Positions 13,625 through 52,463 of a DNA stretch of 64,000 nt are shown here, in pieces. Made by a program: the position numbers and the translations under genes. The notes under the pieces were generated by a model. That model ran no database searches. It had not been told where the DNA came from and worked only from the letters and a program-made list of their open reading frames with translations. Positions within the stretch are counted from its first letter, which is position 1. Each line of letters opens with the position of its first letter. The stretch comes from Thermoanaerobaculum sp. (GTDB lineage: Bacteria; Acidobacteriota; Thermoanaerobaculia; Multivoradales; UBA5704), in contig JAJKHS010000006.1 in the NCBI GenBank assembly GCA_021154885.1, forward strand, positions 1-64,000, given 5' to 3'.

Positions 13625-14097
13625 CATGGCCGCTTCTCGCGTGGCTGGGCCCTCTCCTCCTTCGGCCGAGGACCTTCTTTCCGGGCCGAGAGGTTCTTCA
13701 CGCGGTGAGGAGAGCTTCTCGCGGCTCCGGGAAACTTTCCCAGGGCCTGGAGACTTTTTCGTACGCCGTGAAAACCTTCTCCGTGATCTGGAAAACTTTT
13801 CCGCGCTCCGAGAAACCTTCCCGGCCGGCTGAGAACCTTCTCCGCGGCCTGAGAAACTTTCCCGCCGCGCGGGAAACCTTCTCCGAAGCCTGAAGAACTT
13901 TTTCGGCGACCGGGAAACCTTCCCAGCCGGCTGAGAACCTTCTCAGCGGCCTGAAAAAGTTTCCCGCCGCCTGGGAAACCTTCTCCGGAGCCTGGAGAAC
14001 TTTTTCGGCAGCCGGGAACCTTCTCAGCGGCCTGGAGAACCTTCTCGGCGGCGCTGAAGACCTTCCCGCCACGCCGGAAACCTTTCACCGGCCGGGC
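13625..14097. repeat. array A: degenerate 20-21-bp units with GGAAA-C-TTTCC dyad cores
   Basis: No gene lies in this 480-base stretch. It consists of some 22 imperfect direct repeats. Taking the C of the core AAC-TT as a marker, copies fall at 13735, 13754, 13775, 13796, 13816, 13836, 13857, 13877, 13898, 13918, 13938, 13959, 13979, 14000, 14019, 14040, 14061 and 14081, that is, steps of 19-21 averaging about 20.4. The core is near-palindromic (GGGAAACTTTCCC, GAAAACTTTTC, GAGAACCTTCTC). The mixed step length rules out a repeated peptide. It sits between convergent genes. Confidence 0.9.
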
Positions 14098-15744
14098 TCA
14101 GCAGACTCCGCGCAGCACGCCTTCCAGCACCGCCTCGGCGACCGCCGCAGGCTCCTGGGTGCGCCAAGCGACGAAACCGTCCGGCCTTACCAGGAGGGCG
14201 CCACGATCCCCGACGCCTGCGGTGCGGGACCACGTGCCTTCCGGATCGATCGCGTCGCCGTCGGCGGCGATCCGGAAGGCTTTCACGTCGAGGCCCAGGC
14301 GGGTCGCAACGGCGCGAGCAGAGGCGCACCAGTCCTCGGCGGCCGCACCGGCGAGGAGGGCAAAACCGGGACCGGCGAGGTCGAGGGTCGAAAGGCGCCG
14401 GCCAGCCCGCTCCAGCCAGGCGTGCGGCACGCGCGAGCCGGGGGTGCCGTCGAGATCCCGTGCGAGCTCGTGGAGCGAAGGCGCCGGTTGCGCGCCGCAG
14501 ACGGCGGAGGAGTCGTAGCGGTAGCCGAGGTGGACCACGGCGTCGTTGGCGATGCCCAGCCGTTCTCGTTCGCCGGTGCGGGATGGGTCCCAGTGGAGGT
14601 CCGGACGCTCCAGGCGCAGCAGTGCCTGCTCCATGGCGAAGCGCGCGACGGGCCGGCGTTCGGCGTCGTAGCTGTCGAGCAGCGCTGAGCCGGCTTGGTG
14701 GCGGAGCGCCATCGCCAGCTTCCAGGCCAGGTTGTGCGCGTCGGCGATCCCCGTGTTCAGGCCGAAGCCTCCCAGTGGCGGCACCACGTGGGCCGCGTCC
14801 CCGGCCAGGAAGGCCCGCCCCTCGCGGAAGCGGTCAGCGAGGCGGGCGGCGACGCGCCAGGGGAGGACGCTGAGGATCTCCACCGGCAGGTCCGGCACGC
14901 CGATCGCGGCGCGCGCCACCAACTCGCGGCAGCGCTCGGGAGTGAAGTCTGCCGCCGTCTCGCCGCGCGCCGGATCGTAGGGGACGTGGAGGACCCAGCG
15001 GTCGCGGCCGTCGATGGCCATCAACAATCCCGGCCGCAGCTCGGCGTTTTCGATGACGCAGAGGAGGAGCTCGTGGCCCTGGGTGACGCCGCGCAGGTCC
15101 GCCCGGAAGAGGATGTTGACGATCGGCCCGCCGAGCGGGCCCGGCCCGGTGGCGGGCACGCCGAGAGCCTCGCGGAGGAGGCCGCCGGAGCCGTCGGCGA
15201 CGATGAGGTAGTCGGCCCGGAGGGTTGAACGCCGGTCGCCGTCCCGCTCGGCCAGTGTCGCCGTCACGCCGTCCGCGTCCTGCTCGACGGCGATCACCTC
15301 GGTGCCGAAACGGACCTCGGCCCCGCGCCCACGGGCGGCGCGGAGCAGGATCTCGTCGAGCAGATCCTGGCTGCAGCGACCGCCCTCGACCGGGCTCAAG
15401 CTCGCGCTGGGGTCCGTCGTCCTATGGGAAGGTCCCGAAGGTCCCGAAGCTCCCGGCGAGAGAGTGGTCCAGTCGGCGCTGGCCAGGGTCTTCACCGAGA
15501 TCCGCCTGAGGCCGGCCGCCAGGTGTCCGCCGGCCGCGCGCACCGGGTCGTCGATGCCCAGCTCCCGGAAGATCTCGACCGTGCGGACGCCGACGCCGAG
15601 CGCCCGCGGATGGATCGAGAGAGCCGCGCGGCGCTCGACGGCCAGGGCCGGTACGCCATGATGGGCCAGGAAAAGGGCCGCCGACAGACCGACCGAGCCG
15701 CCGCCGGCGATCAGGACGGGGACGTGCTGGTGAGATCCCCTCAC
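14098..15744 (-). CDS. FAD-dependent aromatic monooxygenase (PheA/TfdB type)
   Basis: 548 residues. The FAD-binding dinucleotide fold begins VLIAGGGSVGLSAALFLA, the DG motif is YLIVADGSGGLLREALG near 190, and the GD motif FLAGDAAHVVPPLGGFGLNTG lies near 310 (given here at 20 or fewer residues as FLAGDAAHVVPP...GLNTG). The C-terminal thioredoxin-like domain of phenol and polyketide hydroxylases follows. It would use NAD(P)H and O2 to hydroxylate a phenolic or polycyclic aromatic compound. No catabolic or polyketide genes are adjacent, so the substrate is open. The GTG start has little ribosome site; the frame stays open upstream into the broken AbrB gene. Confidence 0.87.
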   Translation of the reverse strand: MRGSHQHVPVLIAGGGSVGLSAALFLAHHGVPALAVERRAALSIHPRALGVGVRTVEIFRELGIDDPVRAAGGHLAAGLRRISVKTLASADWTTLSPGASGPSGPSHRTTDPSASLSPVEGGRCSQDLLDEILLRAARGRGAEVRFGTEVIAVEQDADGVTATLAERDGDRRSTLRADYLIVADGSGGLLREALGVPATGPGPLGGPIVNILFRADLRGVTQGHELLLCVIENAELRPGLLMAIDGRDRWVLHVPYDPARGETAADFTPERCRELVARAAIGVPDLPVEILSVLPWRVAARLADRFREGRAFLAGDAAHVVPPLGGFGLNTGIADAHNLAWKLAMALRHQAGSALLDSYDAERRPVARFAMEQALLRLERPDLHWDPSRTGERERLGIANDAVVHLGYRYDSSAVCGAQPAPSLHELARDLDGTPGSRVPHAWLERAGRRLSTLDLAGPGFALLAGAAAEDWCASARAVATRLGLDVKAFRIAADGDAIDPEGTWSRTAGVGDRGALLVRPDGFVAWRTQEPAAVAEAVLEGVLRGVC

Positions 15745-15991
15745 GGCGCGGATCTCGATGGGTAGCCCAAGGTCGAGCCAGATCCGGTCGGCGGTCCGGC
15801 GGGGATGTGCGCGAAGCGCCGGCGCCGCTGGAGCACGGCTTCACGCTTCTTGAGCACGAGGCGGTCATCCTCGACGATGGCGATGAGGACGTCTCCGGGA
15901 GCGATCCCCAACTGGCGGCGGATCTCGGAAGGGATCACGAGGCGGCTTGGGGCCCGACGGAAACCTTGGTCGAAGCAGGAGGCTCTTTCAT
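15741..15991 (-). pseudogene. AbrB/MazE-type antitoxin with a frameshift
   Basis: From an ATG at 15991 with GGGAG just before it, the frame reads MKEPPASTKVSVGPQ and then hits TGA. One base further along, the SpoVT-AbrB fold continues without a gap: RLVIPSEIRRQLGIAPGDVL then IAIVEDDRLVLKKREAVLQ. A single missing base near 15944-15948 (in the codon that should give the GR of the GRxVIP hairpin) explains the break. The C-terminal toxin-binding tail (FAHIPAG) then also runs off in an atypical frame. No PIN or MazF partner is nearby. Confidence 0.75.
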
Positions 15992-16022
15992 AGCTCCCTA
16001 TGATGCCGCAGAATACTCCGTC

Positions 16023-16054
16023 GTGCCACTTCCCCTCAGAGTGGCACGTGCCAC
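16023..16054. promoter_or_regulatory. inverted repeat in the divergent promoter region
   Basis: GTGCCACT, 9 bases, AGTGGCAC, then immediately another GTGCCAC. It lies between the divergent AbrB pseudogene and the serine hydrolase gene, and looks like an operator with a third half-site. No regulator can be assigned. Confidence 0.4.
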
Positions 16055-18291: not shown

Positions 18292-18927
18292 TCAACGAGA
18301 TTTCTGGATCACCACCTCGACGCGGCGGTTCTTCTGACGGCCGGCTTCGGTCGAGTTGTCCGCCACCGGCCGGCTCTTGCCGGCGCCGCGGGTGGTGATC
18401 CGGTCTGCCGCGATCTTTTCCCTCTCGACCAGCCAGCTCTTCACCGACTCCGCCCGGCGCTCCGACAACTTCTGGTTGTAGGCGTCGTTCCCTTTGGCGT
18501 CGGTGTGCCCCTCGATCGCGACCCGGCCCGTGGGGTAGCCGCGAATCACCGTGGCGAGCCGGCCGAGCGCCTGCGCGGCGTCGGGTCGCACGTCCGCCTT
18601 GTCGAAATCGAAGAGGACGTCCGCCGGGAGCTCCACCTTCACTTCGAGTGCCGACTCGGTGGCGCCGAGGGCCTGCATCGCCTGGTGGACCTCTTGGACC
18701 GTGGCCACGATCCCGCTGCCCCCGCTGGAGATGCCGACCGCGAGGCCGACGATCTTCAACACCTGCGGCCGGATTTCGAGCGCGCGCACGGCACCCATCC
18801 GGACGACCGCCGCTTCGGCCGCGGCCTCCGTCGCCGGGTCCCACGGCCCGGCATAGGGCGGCTCCGCGGCGAGCGCCGGCGCGCACGCCAGCACCAACAG
18901 GGCACCTGCCAACCGATCGCGAAACAT
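18292..18927 (-). CDS. OmpA-family outer-membrane/periplasmic protein
   Basis: 211 residues: a signal peptide (LAGALLVLACAPALA), a helical stretch up to residue 95, then a complete OmpA C-terminal peptidoglycan-binding domain (VLFDFDKADVRPDAAQALG, IEGHTDAKGNDAYNQKLSERRA, RVEVVIQK). The GHTD aspartate and the NxxLSxxRA arginine that contact diaminopimelate are present. There is no N-terminal beta barrel, so it acts as a periplasmic cell-wall anchor. Its ATG shares one base with the stop of the upstream lipoprotein gene (TGATG), so the two are translationally coupled. Confidence 0.88.
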   Translation of the reverse strand: MFRDRLAGALLVLACAPALAAEPPYAGPWDPATEAAAEAAVVRMGAVRALEIRPQVLKIVGLAVGISSGGSGIVATVQEVHQAMQALGATESALEVKVELPADVLFDFDKADVRPDAAQALGRLATVIRGYPTGRVAIEGHTDAKGNDAYNQKLSERRAESVKSWLVEREKIAADRITTRGAGKSRPVADNSTEAGRQKNRRVEVVIQKSR

Positions 18928-19550
18928 CACGAATCCTGAATCGCCAGGTCTTCGAAGGGCGGCATGCCCGGGAGCTGCAGGGTCACCGTCTTGACGTCCG
19001 GGGGAGGTGCCGGGAACTTCACCCAGATCGTGTAGGTGGCCCCCGGCGCCAGCCTCTGGTACCACCGGTCGGAGTAGCCCGAACGGAGAGCGGCGATGTA
19101 GGTGCCCTTCTCGTCCTTGAGGGGCTCGTACTTCTTGCCGGCCGCGGCGTCCATTACATACACCTCGCCATAGTGGATGTCGGGCTCGGCCTCGGCGCCC
19201 GCCTGGTTGCGCAGGACCACGCGCGCCGTCAGGGTCGAGCCCTTGCGGCGGAACTCGGTGACGTCGGCGACGATCCCCGGCCAGTTGGTCTGCTGGCTGG
19301 CCAGGGCCCCGGCCGGAGCCGCTGCGGCGGGAGACGCCGTACCGGCCTGCGGAGCCGGCGTGGTGGCCGGCGGCGGCGCGGCGGTCGCAGGCGGAGGAGG
19401 AGTGGTCGTGGTGGTGACTGGCGGCGCCGTGACAGGTGCCGGCGTGGTGCTCGCGGGATTGGGTTGCTGGCCTTCTGGCTCGCGAGCCTTGCAGCCCGCG
19501 GTCACTACGAGAAGCACGGCGATGGCAAACTGAAAATCCCTCGTTCGCAT
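18927..19550 (-). CDS. lipoprotein with Pro/Thr-rich linker and beta-sandwich domain
   Basis: 207 residues. A type II signal ends in the lipobox VTAGC near residue 20. A Pro/Thr/Ala-rich linker (residues about 28-85) is followed by a roughly 110-residue beta-sandwich domain with GSTLTARVVLRNQAG and GATYTIWVKFPAPP, similar to the DUF4352-type domains that sit on cell surfaces. GAGGAG precedes the ATG. It is coupled to the OmpA-like gene, so the two probably form an envelope complex. No enzymatic motif. Confidence 0.75.
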   Translation of the reverse strand: MRTRDFQFAIAVLLVVTAGCKAREPEGQQPNPASTTPAPVTAPPVTTTTTPPPPATAAPPPATTPAPQAGTASPAAAAPAGALASQQTNWPGIVADVTEFRRKGSTLTARVVLRNQAGAEAEPDIHYGEVYVMDAAAGKKYEPLKDEKGTYIAALRSGYSDRWYQRLAPGATYTIWVKFPAPPPDVKTVTLQLPGMPPFEDLAIQDS

Positions 19551-19688
19551 GGCATCTCTCCTCAGGAAGGCACTCAGACGAGACAACGCGGGAGCTGCGG
19601 CTCCCAAGGGGAAGGATACACCTTGACGCCACGGCGCGACGGACGGCCAATCCAGTCGCAGATCCCGCTGAGCCGGCCGCCGTGTTCC

Positions 19689-20255
19689 TCGCGGCATTTG
19701 ATCCTCCATCTGCCACAACGAGAGTCGTCATCGCGGCAATTGCCCTCGACGACGCGGCGATGGGTCCGTCCCGTTGAACGGCGGCCCGGCAATTTGCCAC
19801 GACGTGAGTGTCCCATGGCTCGCAGGACGTATACCTTGCGGCATGTGCTCCTCTCTTTGAGATGCGTGCCCGTCTTCAGGGCTCGCTTTCCTCGTCCCAC
19901 GGCTTGCAGGGCCGGGACGATGCGGCAATCAGTCCGGACTTCGCGTCATTTGGACCTCATGAGGTGGCAAATGGAGGAGCGATCGCCGCAGGTAGAGCGG
20001 CGCGTGTCTCTCGGGCAGGGGCAGTTGCGGGAAGAAGTGGAGAGGAGCAGGCGCGGGACGGACATGTCGTGGCAGATGGCGTGGAAGGCGCGGCGAATGG
20101 TGTGCCGCTTGTGGCAAAGGGTCTGTCAAATACCGCGTGTGACATGTCCTTTGCAGTAAAGAGAGTGTCCGTTGTGGCATTTGATGTGCTCAGTGCCGCG
20201 TATGCCATGTCATTGGCCACGAGTTGGCGAGAGCGGCAGGCAGGGGCTTTGTCAG
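19689..20255. repeat. array B: 27 units of exactly 21 bp with TTGCGGCAA dyad cores
   Basis: The 800-base gap between divergent genes holds units that start at 19689 and every 21 bases thereafter, with no insertion or deletion through unit 27. Across the first 26 units, position 3 is G in 23 and position 7 is C in 22, and position 8 is a purine in 25. The best copies read TTGTGGCAAAG, TTGCGGCATGTG, TTGTGGCATTTG; some read in the opposite sense (TTGCCACGA), because the core TTGC-S-GCAA is itself a palindrome. No frame stays open on either strand throughout. 19551-19688 holds weaker, out-of-register sequence; 20256-20350 holds only the ribosome site of the next gene. Confidence 0.92.
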
Positions 20256-20350
20256 AAAGCCGGCGCGGACCGCGAAGACCCTTGTGCGCAGCGGATTGAA
20301 GCAGGCGCGGATGGACCGAGCTCTACGAAACCGCTGGCAAGGAGAAAACC

Positions 20351-22090
20351 ATGGCACAGGGAAACATTGACGCGCTGCGCGAGAGCGCCCTCGCGTCGCT
20401 GTCCAAGCAGTGGGAAGGGAAGAAGGCGGAGATCGTGCACGAGACGACCGACACCGTTCCCTCCTCCAAGGAGTCCATCTACCGGTTCGTCGTCCGGCCC
20501 GCCGGCGAGCCCAACGGTCCTCAATCGACGGTCGTGCTGGACGCGGCAGGCAAGCCGGTCGACTTGGCTAAGCTGTCGGCGGCGGAAGGCCGGGCCTTCT
20601 TCCCCGTCGCCGAGCACAAGGTCGAGCTGTCGGAGGCGCTGCTCGCCAGGCGCGTTTCCATCAACCCCAGGGTCAACGACGTCCACCTCTCCGAATGCGG
20701 CTTCCGGGAGACGGTCACGGTCACGATCCCGGCCCAGCCGATCGCCGAGAAGATCGACGTCTACTTCCTGGCCGACAACACCTTCAGCATGAACCTCGCG
20801 ATCGGCAACGTGCAAGGGGGGGCAACCTCGATCCTGAACGCCCTGGCGGGGACGGGCCTCGACATCCAGTTCGGCGTCGGCAACTATCACGACTTTGGCG
20901 ACCCCAGCCACTTCCAGAATCAGCAGGTCATCACCGCCAGCAAGCCGGCCGTGATCAGCGCCATCAACGCCTGGTCGGCCAACGATGGCGGCGACCTTCC
21001 GGAGGCCGCGCTGTTCGCTCTGCACGAGGTCAAGACCGTGGCGGGATGGCGCCCGGGAGCCCTGAAGTTCATCGTCTGGTTCGGAGATGCTCCGAGCCAT
21101 GAGCCGATCTGCAAGGCCGTTTGGGGCGGCTTGTTCGACATCACCCGCGCCACGGTGATCGCCGACCTCACGTCCGTGACCACGCCGGCTCAGCCCAAGG
21201 GCATCGCCGTTCTCGCCATCTCGGTCAACAGCGGCTTCAGCAGCACCGGTCTGGATGGCGCCAGCACGGATGGCTACCCCGGGTGCCCCAGCAACGGCCT
21301 TTCCAACCAGGCCACCGACATCACCACGGCCACCGGCGGCTCGCTGACGCTCGGCGTCGACCCGTCGGCCGTCGCCAACGCGATCCTCGCTGCGCTGACC
21401 ACGGCCATTCAGATCCACAACGTCAGCCTCGTGCCGTCGGGCGCGATCACCCCGTTCGTGACCGCGATCACTCCGGCCGCCGGTTACGGCCCCCTGGACC
21501 CGAGGGTCCCCCATACCCTGACCTTCGACGTCGTCTTCGAGCGCCATGGCGAAACGTGCTCGCTGCGCGACCAGGTCTTCACGGGCTCGCTCGACGTCGT
21601 GATGGATCACGTCGTGGTGGCGAGGAAGCCCACGAAGATCACCATCCCGAAATGCCGCTATCACTACGTGGCCAAGTTCGTCTGCGGCGTCAGCGAGCAG
21701 GAGAAAGAAGACTGCTGCAGCCCGGTTCGGCCCGGCCGCTATGCCACGGAGATCAACGTCTACAACGGCTACTGCTCCGACGCGGTGATCGAGAAGTACG
21801 TCACGCCCGTGGTCCTGAGAGGTGAGCCCATCGGCCGCGAGCCTCGCTTGGGCAAGGCGATGGCCCGGGACAAGATCACGCTGTCTCCACAAACGGCGAC
21901 GATGGACGACTGCTGCCGGCTCGCCGAGCTGCTCAAACAGCCGGTGACCTTGAACGGCCCGCTCACCATCGGCTTCCTGGAGATCGTCAGCAGCGTGCCG
22001 CTGACGGTGACTGCGGTCTACACGGCCTCCGGCCTCAGGGAAGAGGCCGTCAGCATCGAGGTCGAGCAGATCCACGAGACCCGCCGGTGA
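20351..22090 (+). CDS. von Willebrand factor A (integrin-beta-like) domain protein
   Basis: 579 residues with AAGGAG 6 bases before the ATG and no obvious signal peptide. A vWA domain starts IDVYFLADNTFSMNLAIGNV near 138 (metal-site DxTxS type, here DNTFS), continues with FGVGNYHDFGDPS and GDLPEAALFALHEV, and ends near 340. A C-terminal part of about 230 residues is rich in cysteine, including DCC pairs (EKEDCCSPV, MDDCCRLAE), and has beta-sandwich character. The order recalls integrin beta I domains. It probably binds another protein in a Mg-dependent way. The upstream region is array B. Function unknown. Confidence 0.75.
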   Translation: MAQGNIDALRESALASLSKQWEGKKAEIVHETTDTVPSSKESIYRFVVRPAGEPNGPQSTVVLDAAGKPVDLAKLSAAEGRAFFPVAEHKVELSEALLARRVSINPRVNDVHLSECGFRETVTVTIPAQPIAEKIDVYFLADNTFSMNLAIGNVQGGATSILNALAGTGLDIQFGVGNYHDFGDPSHFQNQQVITASKPAVISAINAWSANDGGDLPEAALFALHEVKTVAGWRPGALKFIVWFGDAPSHEPICKAVWGGLFDITRATVIADLTSVTTPAQPKGIAVLAISVNSGFSSTGLDGASTDGYPGCPSNGLSNQATDITTATGGSLTLGVDPSAVANAILAALTTAIQIHNVSLVPSGAITPFVTAITPAAGYGPLDPRVPHTLTFDVVFERHGETCSLRDQVFTGSLDVVMDHVVVARKPTKITIPKCRYHYVAKFVCGVSEQEKEDCCSPVRPGRYATEINVYNGYCSDAVIEKYVTPVVLRGEPIGREPRLGKAMARDKITLSPQTATMDDCCRLAELLKQPVTLNGPLTIGFLEIVSSVPLTVTAVYTASGLREEAVSIEVEQIHETRR

Positions 22091-29090: not shown

Positions 29091-29136
29091 CGGAGAGGCT
29101 GACAGGTGTATGGCCGGTGCTACACCGGGGCCGGGG

Positions 29137-29202
29137 ACCCTCATCACCCCGGCCCTCTTCTCCCGCCCCCTCCCACCCCCTCACCGGGAGAAGAGGGAGA
29201 GG
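29137..29202 (+). repeat. REP1 dispersed palindromic repeat, copy a
   Basis: Begins ACCCTCATCACCCCGGCC and forms a hairpin CCTCTTCTCCC/GGGAGAAGAGG. Other copies: 36734 (+), 57086 (-), 58823 (+), 58910 (-). 29203-29342 holds nothing I can assign besides the ribosome region of the next gene. Confidence 0.88.
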
Positions 29203-29359
29203 TTAGTCTCAAGAAAAAGCGACAGAACGTCCTCTCCGGCGCTGGTCACGTCCTCTGGCGAGGCCGTTTCGGGGACCTTCTTTGAATGCGTGCGTCCTGT
29301 GGGAGACCTGGCATCGAGGTTGCTCCGGAATTTGGGCGTGGTATGAAAAGGAGAGAGAA

Positions 29360-50311: not shown

Positions 50312-50575
50312 GAAGACCCCTCTCTCCAGCGCGGCCCTGTGTAAGGCTCCGCGGATCCTGTGTAGGGCCTCGCGAGCCCTTCACGAGAATTCGGGAGCCC
50401 TCGTCCGGGGCTCGCGAGGCCTGCTCCGGGGCTCGCGAAATCTCGTAACGGGCTGGCGAGTTTTTCTCGCGGCCTCGCGGGCCCCGGTGCGGGGATGGTG
50501 AGCCCCGGTCCGGGCCTCGCGAGCCCGTACACAGAATTCCCGAGTTTCTACACCGGGCGTCCGGTCCGCCGTTTG
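50312..50575. repeat. array C: 21-bp units with GGGCTCGCGAGCCC dyad cores
   Basis: The 300 bases between marR and the next gene hold about 12 units. The base at the core centre (A of GCGAG) falls at 50375, 50396, 50417, 50438, 50459, 50480, 50501, 50522 and 50543, an exact step of 21; weaker units extend on both sides. The consensus GGGCTCGCGAGCCC is its own reverse complement. Units vary freely outside the core (CTTCACGAGAATT, TGCTCC, ACACAGAATT). Confidence 0.9.
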
Positions 50576-50591: not shown

Positions 50592-52463
50592 ATGCTGGTC
50601 TACGGCGACGCCAAGCGGGTCGAGTCCCCCCGGGAGAAGGCCGCACGAATGCGCGCGGGTCTCGAAGCCGCCGCGCTCCCCATCGAGCGCCACGCCCTGC
50701 TGGCGGAGATGCTGGTCGAAGCGGGGGAGTTGGAGCAGGGGCTCCTGGACCACGAGCTCGCCCTCTTTGGCGAGGAACGGCCGTCCACCCTGGGGGAGGC
50801 CGCCGGGCGTCTGACCCGGGAGGTGGCCGGCGCGCTGCTCGCCTCATTCCGCTCCTGCCCGTTCGTCCCGACTCCCCTGGTCTTCGCCCTGGACGAGCTG
50901 CTGGCCCTGGAGCTTCCGGAGACGGTGACGGTCTCGGTACCCGAGGGATTCGCCTTCTACGGCCTCTACCCCGAGACCTTCTTCCAAGCCGCTCAAGCCG
51001 CGAGAAGCGAGGGCCCCCTGCGGGTGATCGGCATCCGCAGCATCGGTACGGCCCTGGCCGCGGCTGTGGCGGCAGTGGCAGGGGAGAGCGCGACGGTCTT
51101 CAGCGTGCGGCCACAGGGCCACCCCTTCGACCGCCGTCTGACCGTGAGCCCGTCGCTGGAGCGGGAGATCCTCGCCGGCGCGTCTGAGTTCGTCATCGCG
51201 GACGAGGGGCCGGGCCTCTCCGGCAGTTCCTTCGGCTGCGTGGCGGACTGGCTGGAAGACCGCGGCGTCGAACCAGGCGCCATCTCCTTTTTCCCCAGTC
51301 ACCACGGCAGCCTTGGCCCCTACGCCGGAGAGCGGCACCGGCGCCGGTGGGAGGGAGCCCGGCGCCACGTGGCCGAATTCGAGGAGGTCTTTGCAGCGGC
51401 CGATTCCCGCTGGCCCGTCCACCGCTGGGCCGAGGACCTGACGGGGCCGGCCGACAGGCCGGCCGAGGACCTGAGCGCTGGGCGCTGGCGGGAGCGGCTG
51501 TTCCCCGACCGCTCGCGCTGGCCGGCCGCCGACCTCCAGGGAGAGCGGCGCAAGCTCCTGGTGACGGCAGGAGGCCGGCCCTGGCTCCTCAAGTTCGCCG
51601 GGCTCGGCCGTTACGGCCGGGAGAAGCTGGAGCTGGCCGAGGCCCTGGGCGAGGCGGGCCTGAGTCCCCCGGTGTCCGGTCTGCGGCACGGCTTCCTGGT
51701 AGGCCCCTGGCTGGAGGATGCCCGACCGCTCCCCCTCGTGTCCGGCTTCGACCGCTCCGCCCTGCTGGAGGCCCTCGGCCGCTATCTCGCCTTGCGCATC
51801 CGGCGGTTCCCAGCCTCGGAGGCGGAGCGCGGCGCGGCCCCCGAGAAACTCTTCGAGATGGCCGTCTTCAATACCGGTCGCCTCCTCGGATCCGCGTCGG
51901 TGGAGGAGTGGCGAGGGCGGCTGCCGGAGATCGCGCGGCTGGAGCGGCCCCTCCTAACCGACAACAAAATGCACGCCTGGGAGTGGCTGGTCCTGCCTGA
52001 TGGTCGGATTCTGAAGGCCGACGCCGTGGACCACCACCGCGCCAACGACCTCGTGGGACCCCAGGACATCGCCTGGGACCTGGCCGGCGCCGCCGTGGAG
52101 CTGGAGCTTGACGAAGGCGAGCTGAACCTCCTCGCCACCGCCACCCGGACGACGCCCGTGCAGCTCGGCTTCTACACCCTGGCCTACCTCGCCTTCCAAG
52201 CCGGGCGCTGCAGCCTGGCGGCCCAGGCGGTGGAGGCCTTCGCCCCGGAGGAGGCGGGGCGTCTGCAGAGGGAGGTGGCGCGGTATTCGGAGCGGCTGCG
52301 CGGTGAAGCAGGGACTTCAGGGACTCCAGGGACTCCAGGGACTCCAGGGACTTCAGGGACTCCAGGGACTCCAGGGACTCCAGGGACTCCAGGGACTTCA
52401 GGGACTTCAGGGACTCCAGGGACTCCAGGGACATGGAACCCCCTGGGGCTTCTTCGTCTCTGA
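50592..52463 (+). CDS. phosphoribosyltransferase-like and kinase-like fusion protein with Gly-Thr-Pro tail
   Basis: 623 residues, cytoplasmic. The first half has a PRTase-like fold: [19 protein letters not shown], then [16 protein letters not shown], the PRPP-loop style of the PRTase domains found in StiP/tellurite-type conflict operons. The second half has a kinase-like look: [32 protein letters not shown] and [20 protein letters not shown] then [11 protein letters not shown]. The last 50 residues are 13 GTP/GTS triplets, encoded by 9-base repeats from the REP2 element, so the natural end is probably near residue 573. A small HAD phosphatase faces it. Function unknown. Confidence 0.6.

What the first reader, a model, noticed from the sequence alone, without database searches (positions are those of the whole stretch)
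19689..20255. Array B: 27 exactly phased 21-bp degenerate palindromic units between divergent genes
Units start at 19689 and repeat every 21 bases with no slip over 567 bases, yet individual units differ at half their positions. In the first 26 units position 3 is G in 23, position 7 is C in 22 and position 8 is a purine in 25. The conserved core approximates TTGCSGCAA, a palindrome. An old minisatellite would normally drift out of register by insertions and deletions; here register is kept while sequence is not. 21 bp equals two helical turns, so every core faces the same side of the DNA. That suggests selection for spacing, for example cooperative binding of a dimeric DNA-binding protein or a chain of small RNA hairpins.
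Basis: seen in the sequence. Interest (0 to 1): 0.85.

Follow-up and report, generated by a model that had tools for sequence, protein, structure and literature searches.

The report
Genome-wide arrays of phased DNA palindromes
The window holds one of roughly two hundred intergenic arrays in this bacterium, each built of short near-palindromic DNA words placed 20-21 base pairs (two turns of the helix) apart; they come and go between related species, and look-alikes occur in unrelated bacteria, which suggests landing strips for an unknown paired DNA-binding protein rather than ordinary decayed repeats.

Summary
In detail: lag-21 self-match 0.40 against 0.27 +/- 0.02 in shuffles, 26 unit spacings all exactly 21. 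It is not a single curiosity. In 841 kb of the same genome 25 non-coding periodic regions were found; leaving out three inside one repetitive gene, 20 of 22 have units of 20-21 bp. The window alone holds three (A 13654-14096, B 19679-20224, C 50334-50558). Each family has its own near-palindromic core. Palindromic symmetry is significant in 34 of 36 arrays, but pairing arms do not covary, so hairpin chains are not supported. Codon-position composition argues against coding. Arrays turn over fast: C and one other are absent at the same site in same-genus genomes, and C-type arrays occur as dispersed homologous copies whose TCGCGA core changes three times slower than the rest. An unrelated Bacillus carries arrays of TTCGCGAA at 20-21 bp with unrelated spacers. 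Best reading: dispersed arrays of symmetric binding sites on one face of the helix, for an unidentified dimeric protein. The factor and the function are not shown. For B itself neither insertion nor binding is shown; its one relative found is G000:C80.

The parts
19679..20224 (.). Array B: 26 units of exactly 21 bp, near-palindromic core about TTGCSGCAA, second dyad 10.5 bp away (GTGTCC/GGACAT)
   Evidence: Autocorrelation; profile HMM fit and column-permutation test; spacings
18927..19552 (-). left flanking gene, a predicted lipoprotein (MRTRDFQFAIAVLLVVTAGCK...)
   Evidence: ORF list
20351..22090 (+). right flanking gene, 579 aa; no match in the same-genus genomes G001 and G002 nor in G003
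   Evidence: ORF list; search of 40 relatives
13654..14096 (.). Array A: about 22 units of 20-21 bp (mean about 20.4), GGAGAACCTTCTCC-like units, between convergent genes
   Evidence: homologous array at G000:C144:136507-136952 (70% over 328 bp)
50334..50558 (.). Array C: about 10 units of 21 bp, core CTCGCGAG, between divergent genes; absent at this site in G001, G002, G003
   Evidence: 235-bp 82% reverse copy at G000:C90:11870-12103

Best explanation
Array B belongs to a genome-wide class of non-coding intergenic arrays whose units are near-palindromic cores repeated every 20-21 bp. Shown: the class, its spacing, its symmetry, its non-coding composition, dispersal of at least one core family as homologous copies, presence/absence differences between species for two arrays, and slower change in the core than in the spacers. 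Inferred: the core is a symmetric recognition site for a dimeric DNA-binding protein; two-turn spacing places all sites on one face of the helix so that dimers bind side by side and coat the array; whole-unit duplication and unequal exchange grow arrays without loss of register; dispersal copies arrays to new intergenic sites. The consequence (silencing, insulation, nucleoid folding, or the spread of a selfish site) is unknown. For array B itself only the sequence-level properties and one relative are shown.
For: Periods 12-99 were scanned without preference: of 25 non-coding hits, 23 have lags at 20-21 or their multiples (3 of these lie in one repetitive gene), and 2 have lag 18. 406 unit spacings: 21 in 313, 20 in 84, 22 in 7 (that HMM allowed only 20 or 21 as unit length). 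Palindromic symmetry p<0.05 in 34 of 36 arrays. The pattern CTCGCGA...TCGCGAG has 29 hits against 2 for the reversed control, 18 of them at 21 bp, 3 at 20 and 6 at 41. Between homologous copies the TCGCGA core differs at 15/286 sites and the rest at 195/1290 (Fisher p about 2e-6, though the pairs share sequences). Bacillus massilionigeriensis: 99 forward hits against 1 control hit; core spacing 20 in 56 and 21 in 30 of 97; core columns 0.73-0.98 identical within arrays, mid-spacer columns 0.31-0.41. B and its relative G000:C80:151926-152524 keep exactly 21 bp through 26 and 28 units, at about 0.40 unit-to-unit identity in B.
Against: No binding protein was identified and no binding data exist. 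At least ten different cores in one genome would need many specificities, or recognition of symmetry and phase alone. Cores are lineage-specific (the TCGCGA triple pattern is absent from G001-G003) and arrays are not kept at the same sites, which argues against a fixed regulatory role for neighbouring genes. The indel count between homologous copies (about 8 per 210 substitutions) is low but was not compared with a neutral rate for this lineage.
Confidence: 0.5

Rival explanations
1. A dispersed minisatellite without host function: units arise by slippage and unequal exchange, arrays are copied to new sites as selfish or neutral DNA, and the 20-21 bp unit reflects a mechanical preference of the amplifying machinery (two helical turns, symmetric loop) rather than a bound protein.
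For: Multi-unit blocks are repeated in tandem (a five-unit block of about 104 bp three times in G002); homologous arrays are dispersed in both orientations; arrays are lineage-specific; there is no preference for one gene arrangement (tandem 16, convergent 8, divergent 5).
Against: The core is about three times more conserved than the rest between dispersed copies, and the Bacillus arrays keep the core while spacers are near random; the similarity of units is flat with distance in B.
Confidence: 0.33
2. Chain of small hairpins acting as RNA or as DNA cruciforms.
For: Units are palindromic; both strands of B fold better than shuffles (z -2.9 and -3.6).
Against: Arms of the same unit are no more complementary than arms of different units (mean difference -0.05 of 5 positions, 33 of 72 dyads positive); the minimum-energy fold of B is long-range; no Rfam match in the window.
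Confidence: 0.08
3. Decayed or real gene for a heptad-repeat protein (21 bp = 7 codons).
For: One frame of the relative C80 is open through all units and reads as degenerate heptads.
Against: GC per codon position is flat (C80 0.62/0.63/0.62; B 0.68/0.58/0.58) against 0.61/0.47/0.90 in the neighbouring gene; B has stops in every frame; arrays of 20 bp and mixed 20/21 bp cannot be heptads.
Confidence: 0.03
4. CRISPR-like or TIGR-like guide array.
For: The Bacillus arrays have constant cores and variable spacers.
Against: About 20 arrays in 841 kb, and no cas or Nop-domain gene was seen beside array B (the other arrays were not searched for one). TIGR units give 36-nt guides with edge and loop repeats and lie beside a Tas protein (PMC12045711). 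Spacers of about 12 bp in Bacillus are short for guides, and in this genome the spacers are related, not unique.
Confidence: 0.04

Closest known systems
Dispersed non-coding satellites of prokaryotes (for example Leptospira interrogans, Chloroflexus aurantiacus; PMC6749651)
   Same: Short tandem arrays, intergenic, copied to many places, species-specific
   Different: Those described have other unit lengths (46-nt families in Leptospira; a 14-nt family in Chloroflexus), and the passages read report no palindromic core or uniform two-turn spacing across families of unrelated sequence
REP/REPIN elements with RAYT transposases (PMC3733652, PMC3116915)
   Same: Short palindromes, intergenic, many copies, lineage-specific
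   Different: REPs are 20-40 bp stem-loops tagged GTAG or CGTC, mostly single or paired; here GTAG is depleted (15 GTAG+CTAC against about 43 expected in 6632 bp) and palindromes are head-to-tail at fixed 20-21 bp
Plasmid iterons and operator arrays (from general knowledge)
   Same: Repeated protein-binding sites at about 20-22 bp, same face of the helix
   Different: Iterons sit at one replication origin beside a rep gene; here arrays are many, dispersed and without a common neighbour seen
TIGR arrays (PMC12045711)
   Same: Repeats with short variable spacers in tandem
   Different: Different unit length and motifs, adjacent Tas protein

Membership tests
REP/REPIN (GTAG or CGTC tagged) | GTAG/CGTC tetranucleotide at one end of each palindrome | tested here: not met
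   20 arrays, 6632 bp: GTAG+CTAC 15 against about 43 expected; CGTC 53 against 40 expected; array B has 1 GTAG and 5 CGTC in 26 units. RAYT-type genes do exist in the genome (12 Y1_Tnp matches).
REP/REPIN (GTAG or CGTC tagged) | stem pairing maintained | tested here: not met
   No covariation between arms in 36 arrays
CRISPR array | near-identical repeats with unique spacers of similar length, beside cas genes | tested here: not met
   Units of 20-21 bp, B units about 40% identical; the same scan did recover a CRISPR array in G029. cas genes were not searched for by profile.
Dispersed prokaryotic satellite/minisatellite | tandem units, non-coding, several related arrays at different loci | tested here: met
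   C-type arrays at 12 or more loci, four of them 81-89% alike end to end; one relative for B
Array of binding sites for a dimeric protein | symmetric core under constraint at helical spacing | tested here: met
   met for the class, for B by symmetry, register and uneven column conservation only
Array of binding sites for a dimeric protein | a protein that binds it | not testable with these tools
   No binding data; no candidate gene found
Protein-coding heptad repeat | open frame with the codon composition of the genome | tested here: not met
TIGR array | adjacent Nop-domain Tas gene | not tested
   Not searched for by profile; the ORFs beside array B do not suggest one

The most novel reading that the evidence does not exclude
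Many unrelated bacteria carry an undescribed class of chromosomal element: phased-palindrome arrays in which a lineage-specific symmetric core is set every two helical turns, read by a dimeric coat protein, and spread and replaced as a unit. Array B would be an old member whose register, but not its sequence, is kept by selection.
Probability: 0.35. Interest if true: 0.87.

Novelty: new variant of a known kind. Interest (0 to 1): 0.7.

Why it matters
If the reading holds, some bacterial genomes contain a couple of hundred protein-binding lattices that no annotation records and that turn over between sister species. They would be testable by pull-down, RNA-seq and ChIP in a cultured carrier such as Bacillus massilionigeriensis. 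Even if the arrays are selfish or neutral, a uniform two-turn unit across unrelated sequences asks for a physical explanation that ordinary minisatellite models do not give.

Tried and rejected
Coding gene or decayed heptad protein: disfavoured by codon-position GC and by stops. Hairpin chain: disfavoured by lack of covariation. REP elements: no GTAG tag. Rfam: no match in the window. Orthologue of the B locus: the right-hand gene has no match in G001-G003 and the region around B was not found there, so insertion could not be tested for B; array C144:233808 was likewise not informative, and array C144:223060 lies inside a larger stretch missing from G001. The genome contigs DNA scan was mis-set to a 20-bp period instead of 21; its 65 hits show that such arrays exist elsewhere but say nothing on preferred spacing, which is why spacing in Bacillus was then measured with an open gap. 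400 kb from 10 genomes of the same order gave no 20-21 bp array. Literature searches (10, open-access papers only) found no description of such arrays.

Full report
WHAT WAS CHECKED. The 567 bases at 19689-20255 match themselves at lag 21 in 39.9% of positions, at lag 42 in 41.7% and at lag 63 in 38.1%. Mononucleotide shuffles give 26.6% with a maximum of 34.2% in 2000 trials at lag 21, and dinucleotide-preserving shuffles have maxima of 33.5, 32.8 and 32.9% in 1000 trials. A cyclic profile HMM puts the array at 19679-20224, with all unit spacings equal to 21. The symmetry of the columns is not reached by any of 5000 column permutations.

NOT ALONE. A scan of the window for any period finds two more intergenic arrays: A at 13654-14096 (units of 20-21 bp, between convergent genes) and C at 50334-50558 (21 bp, core CTCGCGAG, between divergent genes). 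In 841 kb of the same genome the scan of periods 12 to 99 gave 25 regions without a coding signature. Three are 63-base peaks in what looks like one repetitive gene at C144:20-22 kb (judged from its sequence). Of the other 22, 20 have a unit of 20-21 bp. That extrapolates to about 200 in the 8.2-Mb genome; the extrapolation is mine. In 30 arrays fitted, 406 unit spacings are 21 (313), 20 (84), 22 (7), 19 (1) and 18 (1). That HMM was offered only 20 or 21 as unit length, so the unbiased support for the length is the scan and, for the TCGCGA family, the open-gap pattern search in the whole genome: 29 hits against 2 for the control, 18 at 21 bp, 3 at 20 and 6 at 41.

SYMMETRY WITHOUT PAIRING. Column symmetry is significant (p<0.05) in 34 of 36 arrays. 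Yet the two arms in one unit are no more complementary than arms drawn from different units: the mean difference is -0.05 of 5 positions, positive in 33 of 72 dyads. Units therefore resemble symmetric half-sites that change independently, as expected for a dimeric protein site and not for a hairpin. RNA folding of B is somewhat better than shuffles on both strands (z -2.9, -3.6), as self-complementary DNA must be, but the structure is long-range.

NOT CODING. GC at codon positions is flat in B (0.68/0.58/0.58) and in its relative C80 (0.62/0.63/0.62); the neighbouring gene shows 0.61/0.47/0.90. B has stops in all six frames, although one frame of C80 is open throughout. Arrays with 20 or mixed 20/21 bp units cannot encode heptads.

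FAMILIES AND TURNOVER. Arrays with the TCGCGA core are homologous copies: four align over 190-231 bp at 81-89% in both orientations, and array C aligns to G000:C90 at 82% over 235 bp, reversed. B has one relative found in the sampled DNA, G000:C80:151926-152524, with the same consensus and 28 spacings of exactly 21, in the divergent region beside a gene that looks like ftsK. Array C is missing at the same site in same-genus G001 and G002 (18-28 bp between the matching flanks instead of about 270-300) and in G003; array C144:306564-306803 is missing in G001 and G002 (58 and 75 bp instead of about 304 and 327). G001 has an array at a place where G000 has none. Phased TCGCGA triples are absent from G001, G002 and G003, which carry arrays with other cores. 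No outgroup was used to separate gain from loss; absence in both genus mates and in G003 favours gain for C. For B no orthologous locus was found, so its insertion is not shown. 400 kb from ten other genomes of the order gave no such array, while the method did find a CRISPR array.

CONSTRAINT. Between homologous copies the TCGCGA core differs at 15 of 286 sites and the rest at 195 of 1290. The pairs share sequences, and cores were defined as sites where at least one copy is intact, so the p value (2e-6) is optimistic. Array B shows uneven column conservation (chi2 47.2, df 20, p 5e-4) and a unit similarity that is flat with distance, 0.38-0.44 over one to seven units.

ELSEWHERE. A scan of genome contigs for three phased cores (period mis-set to 20) hit 65 stretches, among them Microbacterium, Isoptericola, Filobacillus and Bacillus massilionigeriensis. 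In the last, an open-gap search gave 99 forward hits against 1 control hit. Arrays of TTCGCGAA have spacings of 20 (56), 21 (30) and 19 (7) of 97; core columns are 0.73-0.98 identical within arrays, and the middle of the spacer 0.31-0.41. The eleven arrays read there were fetched because they matched, so they say nothing about density; the one in L272 is the array already seen in L238. This is the clearest case of a fixed core, fixed spacing and free spacer. In the other taxa the foreign arrays were selected by the core and mostly short, and palindromic symmetry beyond the core was significant in only a few of the 44 tested before the script stopped.

MECHANISM. The most likely reading is an array of symmetric sites on one face of the helix bound by a dimeric protein, dispersed and renewed as a unit. 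Shown: class, spacing, symmetry, non-coding composition, dispersal and presence/absence for the TCGCGA family, slower core change. Inferred: the protein, cooperative binding, the dispersal mechanism, and any effect on the cell. A neutral or selfish minisatellite with a mechanical unit preference remains a serious rival (0.33).

COMPARISON. Dispersed prokaryotic satellites are known (PMC6749651), as are REP elements (PMC3733652), guide arrays (PMC12045711) and a survey that left many interspaced periodic repeats unexplored (PMC6344855). None of the passages read describes palindromic cores at a uniform 20-21 bp. The library holds open-access papers only, so an existing description cannot be excluded.

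Noticed in passing
window 20245-20282: 38-bp stretch just after array B, 89% identical to G000:C144:26870-26907, which also lies shortly upstream of a gene start; perhaps a shared promoter or leader element.
   Followed up: partly
window 29130-29209: About 70-bp repeat with dozens of dispersed copies in G001 and G002.
   Followed up: no
window 52309-52432: Nearly perfect 9-bp tandem repeat (CAGGGACTC) at the 3' end of an ORF; related repeats are dispersed in G001 and G002.
   Followed up: no
L032:6419-6519: About 100-bp element with many copies in G002 and G003, often as inverted pairs about 10-30 bp apart, REPIN-like in layout.
   Followed up: no
L180:300-2500: G029 carries a CRISPR array with repeat GTCAATCCCCGCGGGCACGGGGACACC and 61-bp period.
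   Followed up: no
L145:5155-5480: In G002 a five-unit block of palindromes (AGACCTGGCCAGGTCT and AAACCTCCCGAGGTTT types) is repeated three times almost unchanged, showing block duplication inside an array.
   Followed up: partly
window 15727-16048: Stretch similar to a G002 region directly beside the G002:C814 array and to G000:C108:82980-83694; possibly a small toxin-antitoxin-like gene pair, not tested.
   Followed up: no
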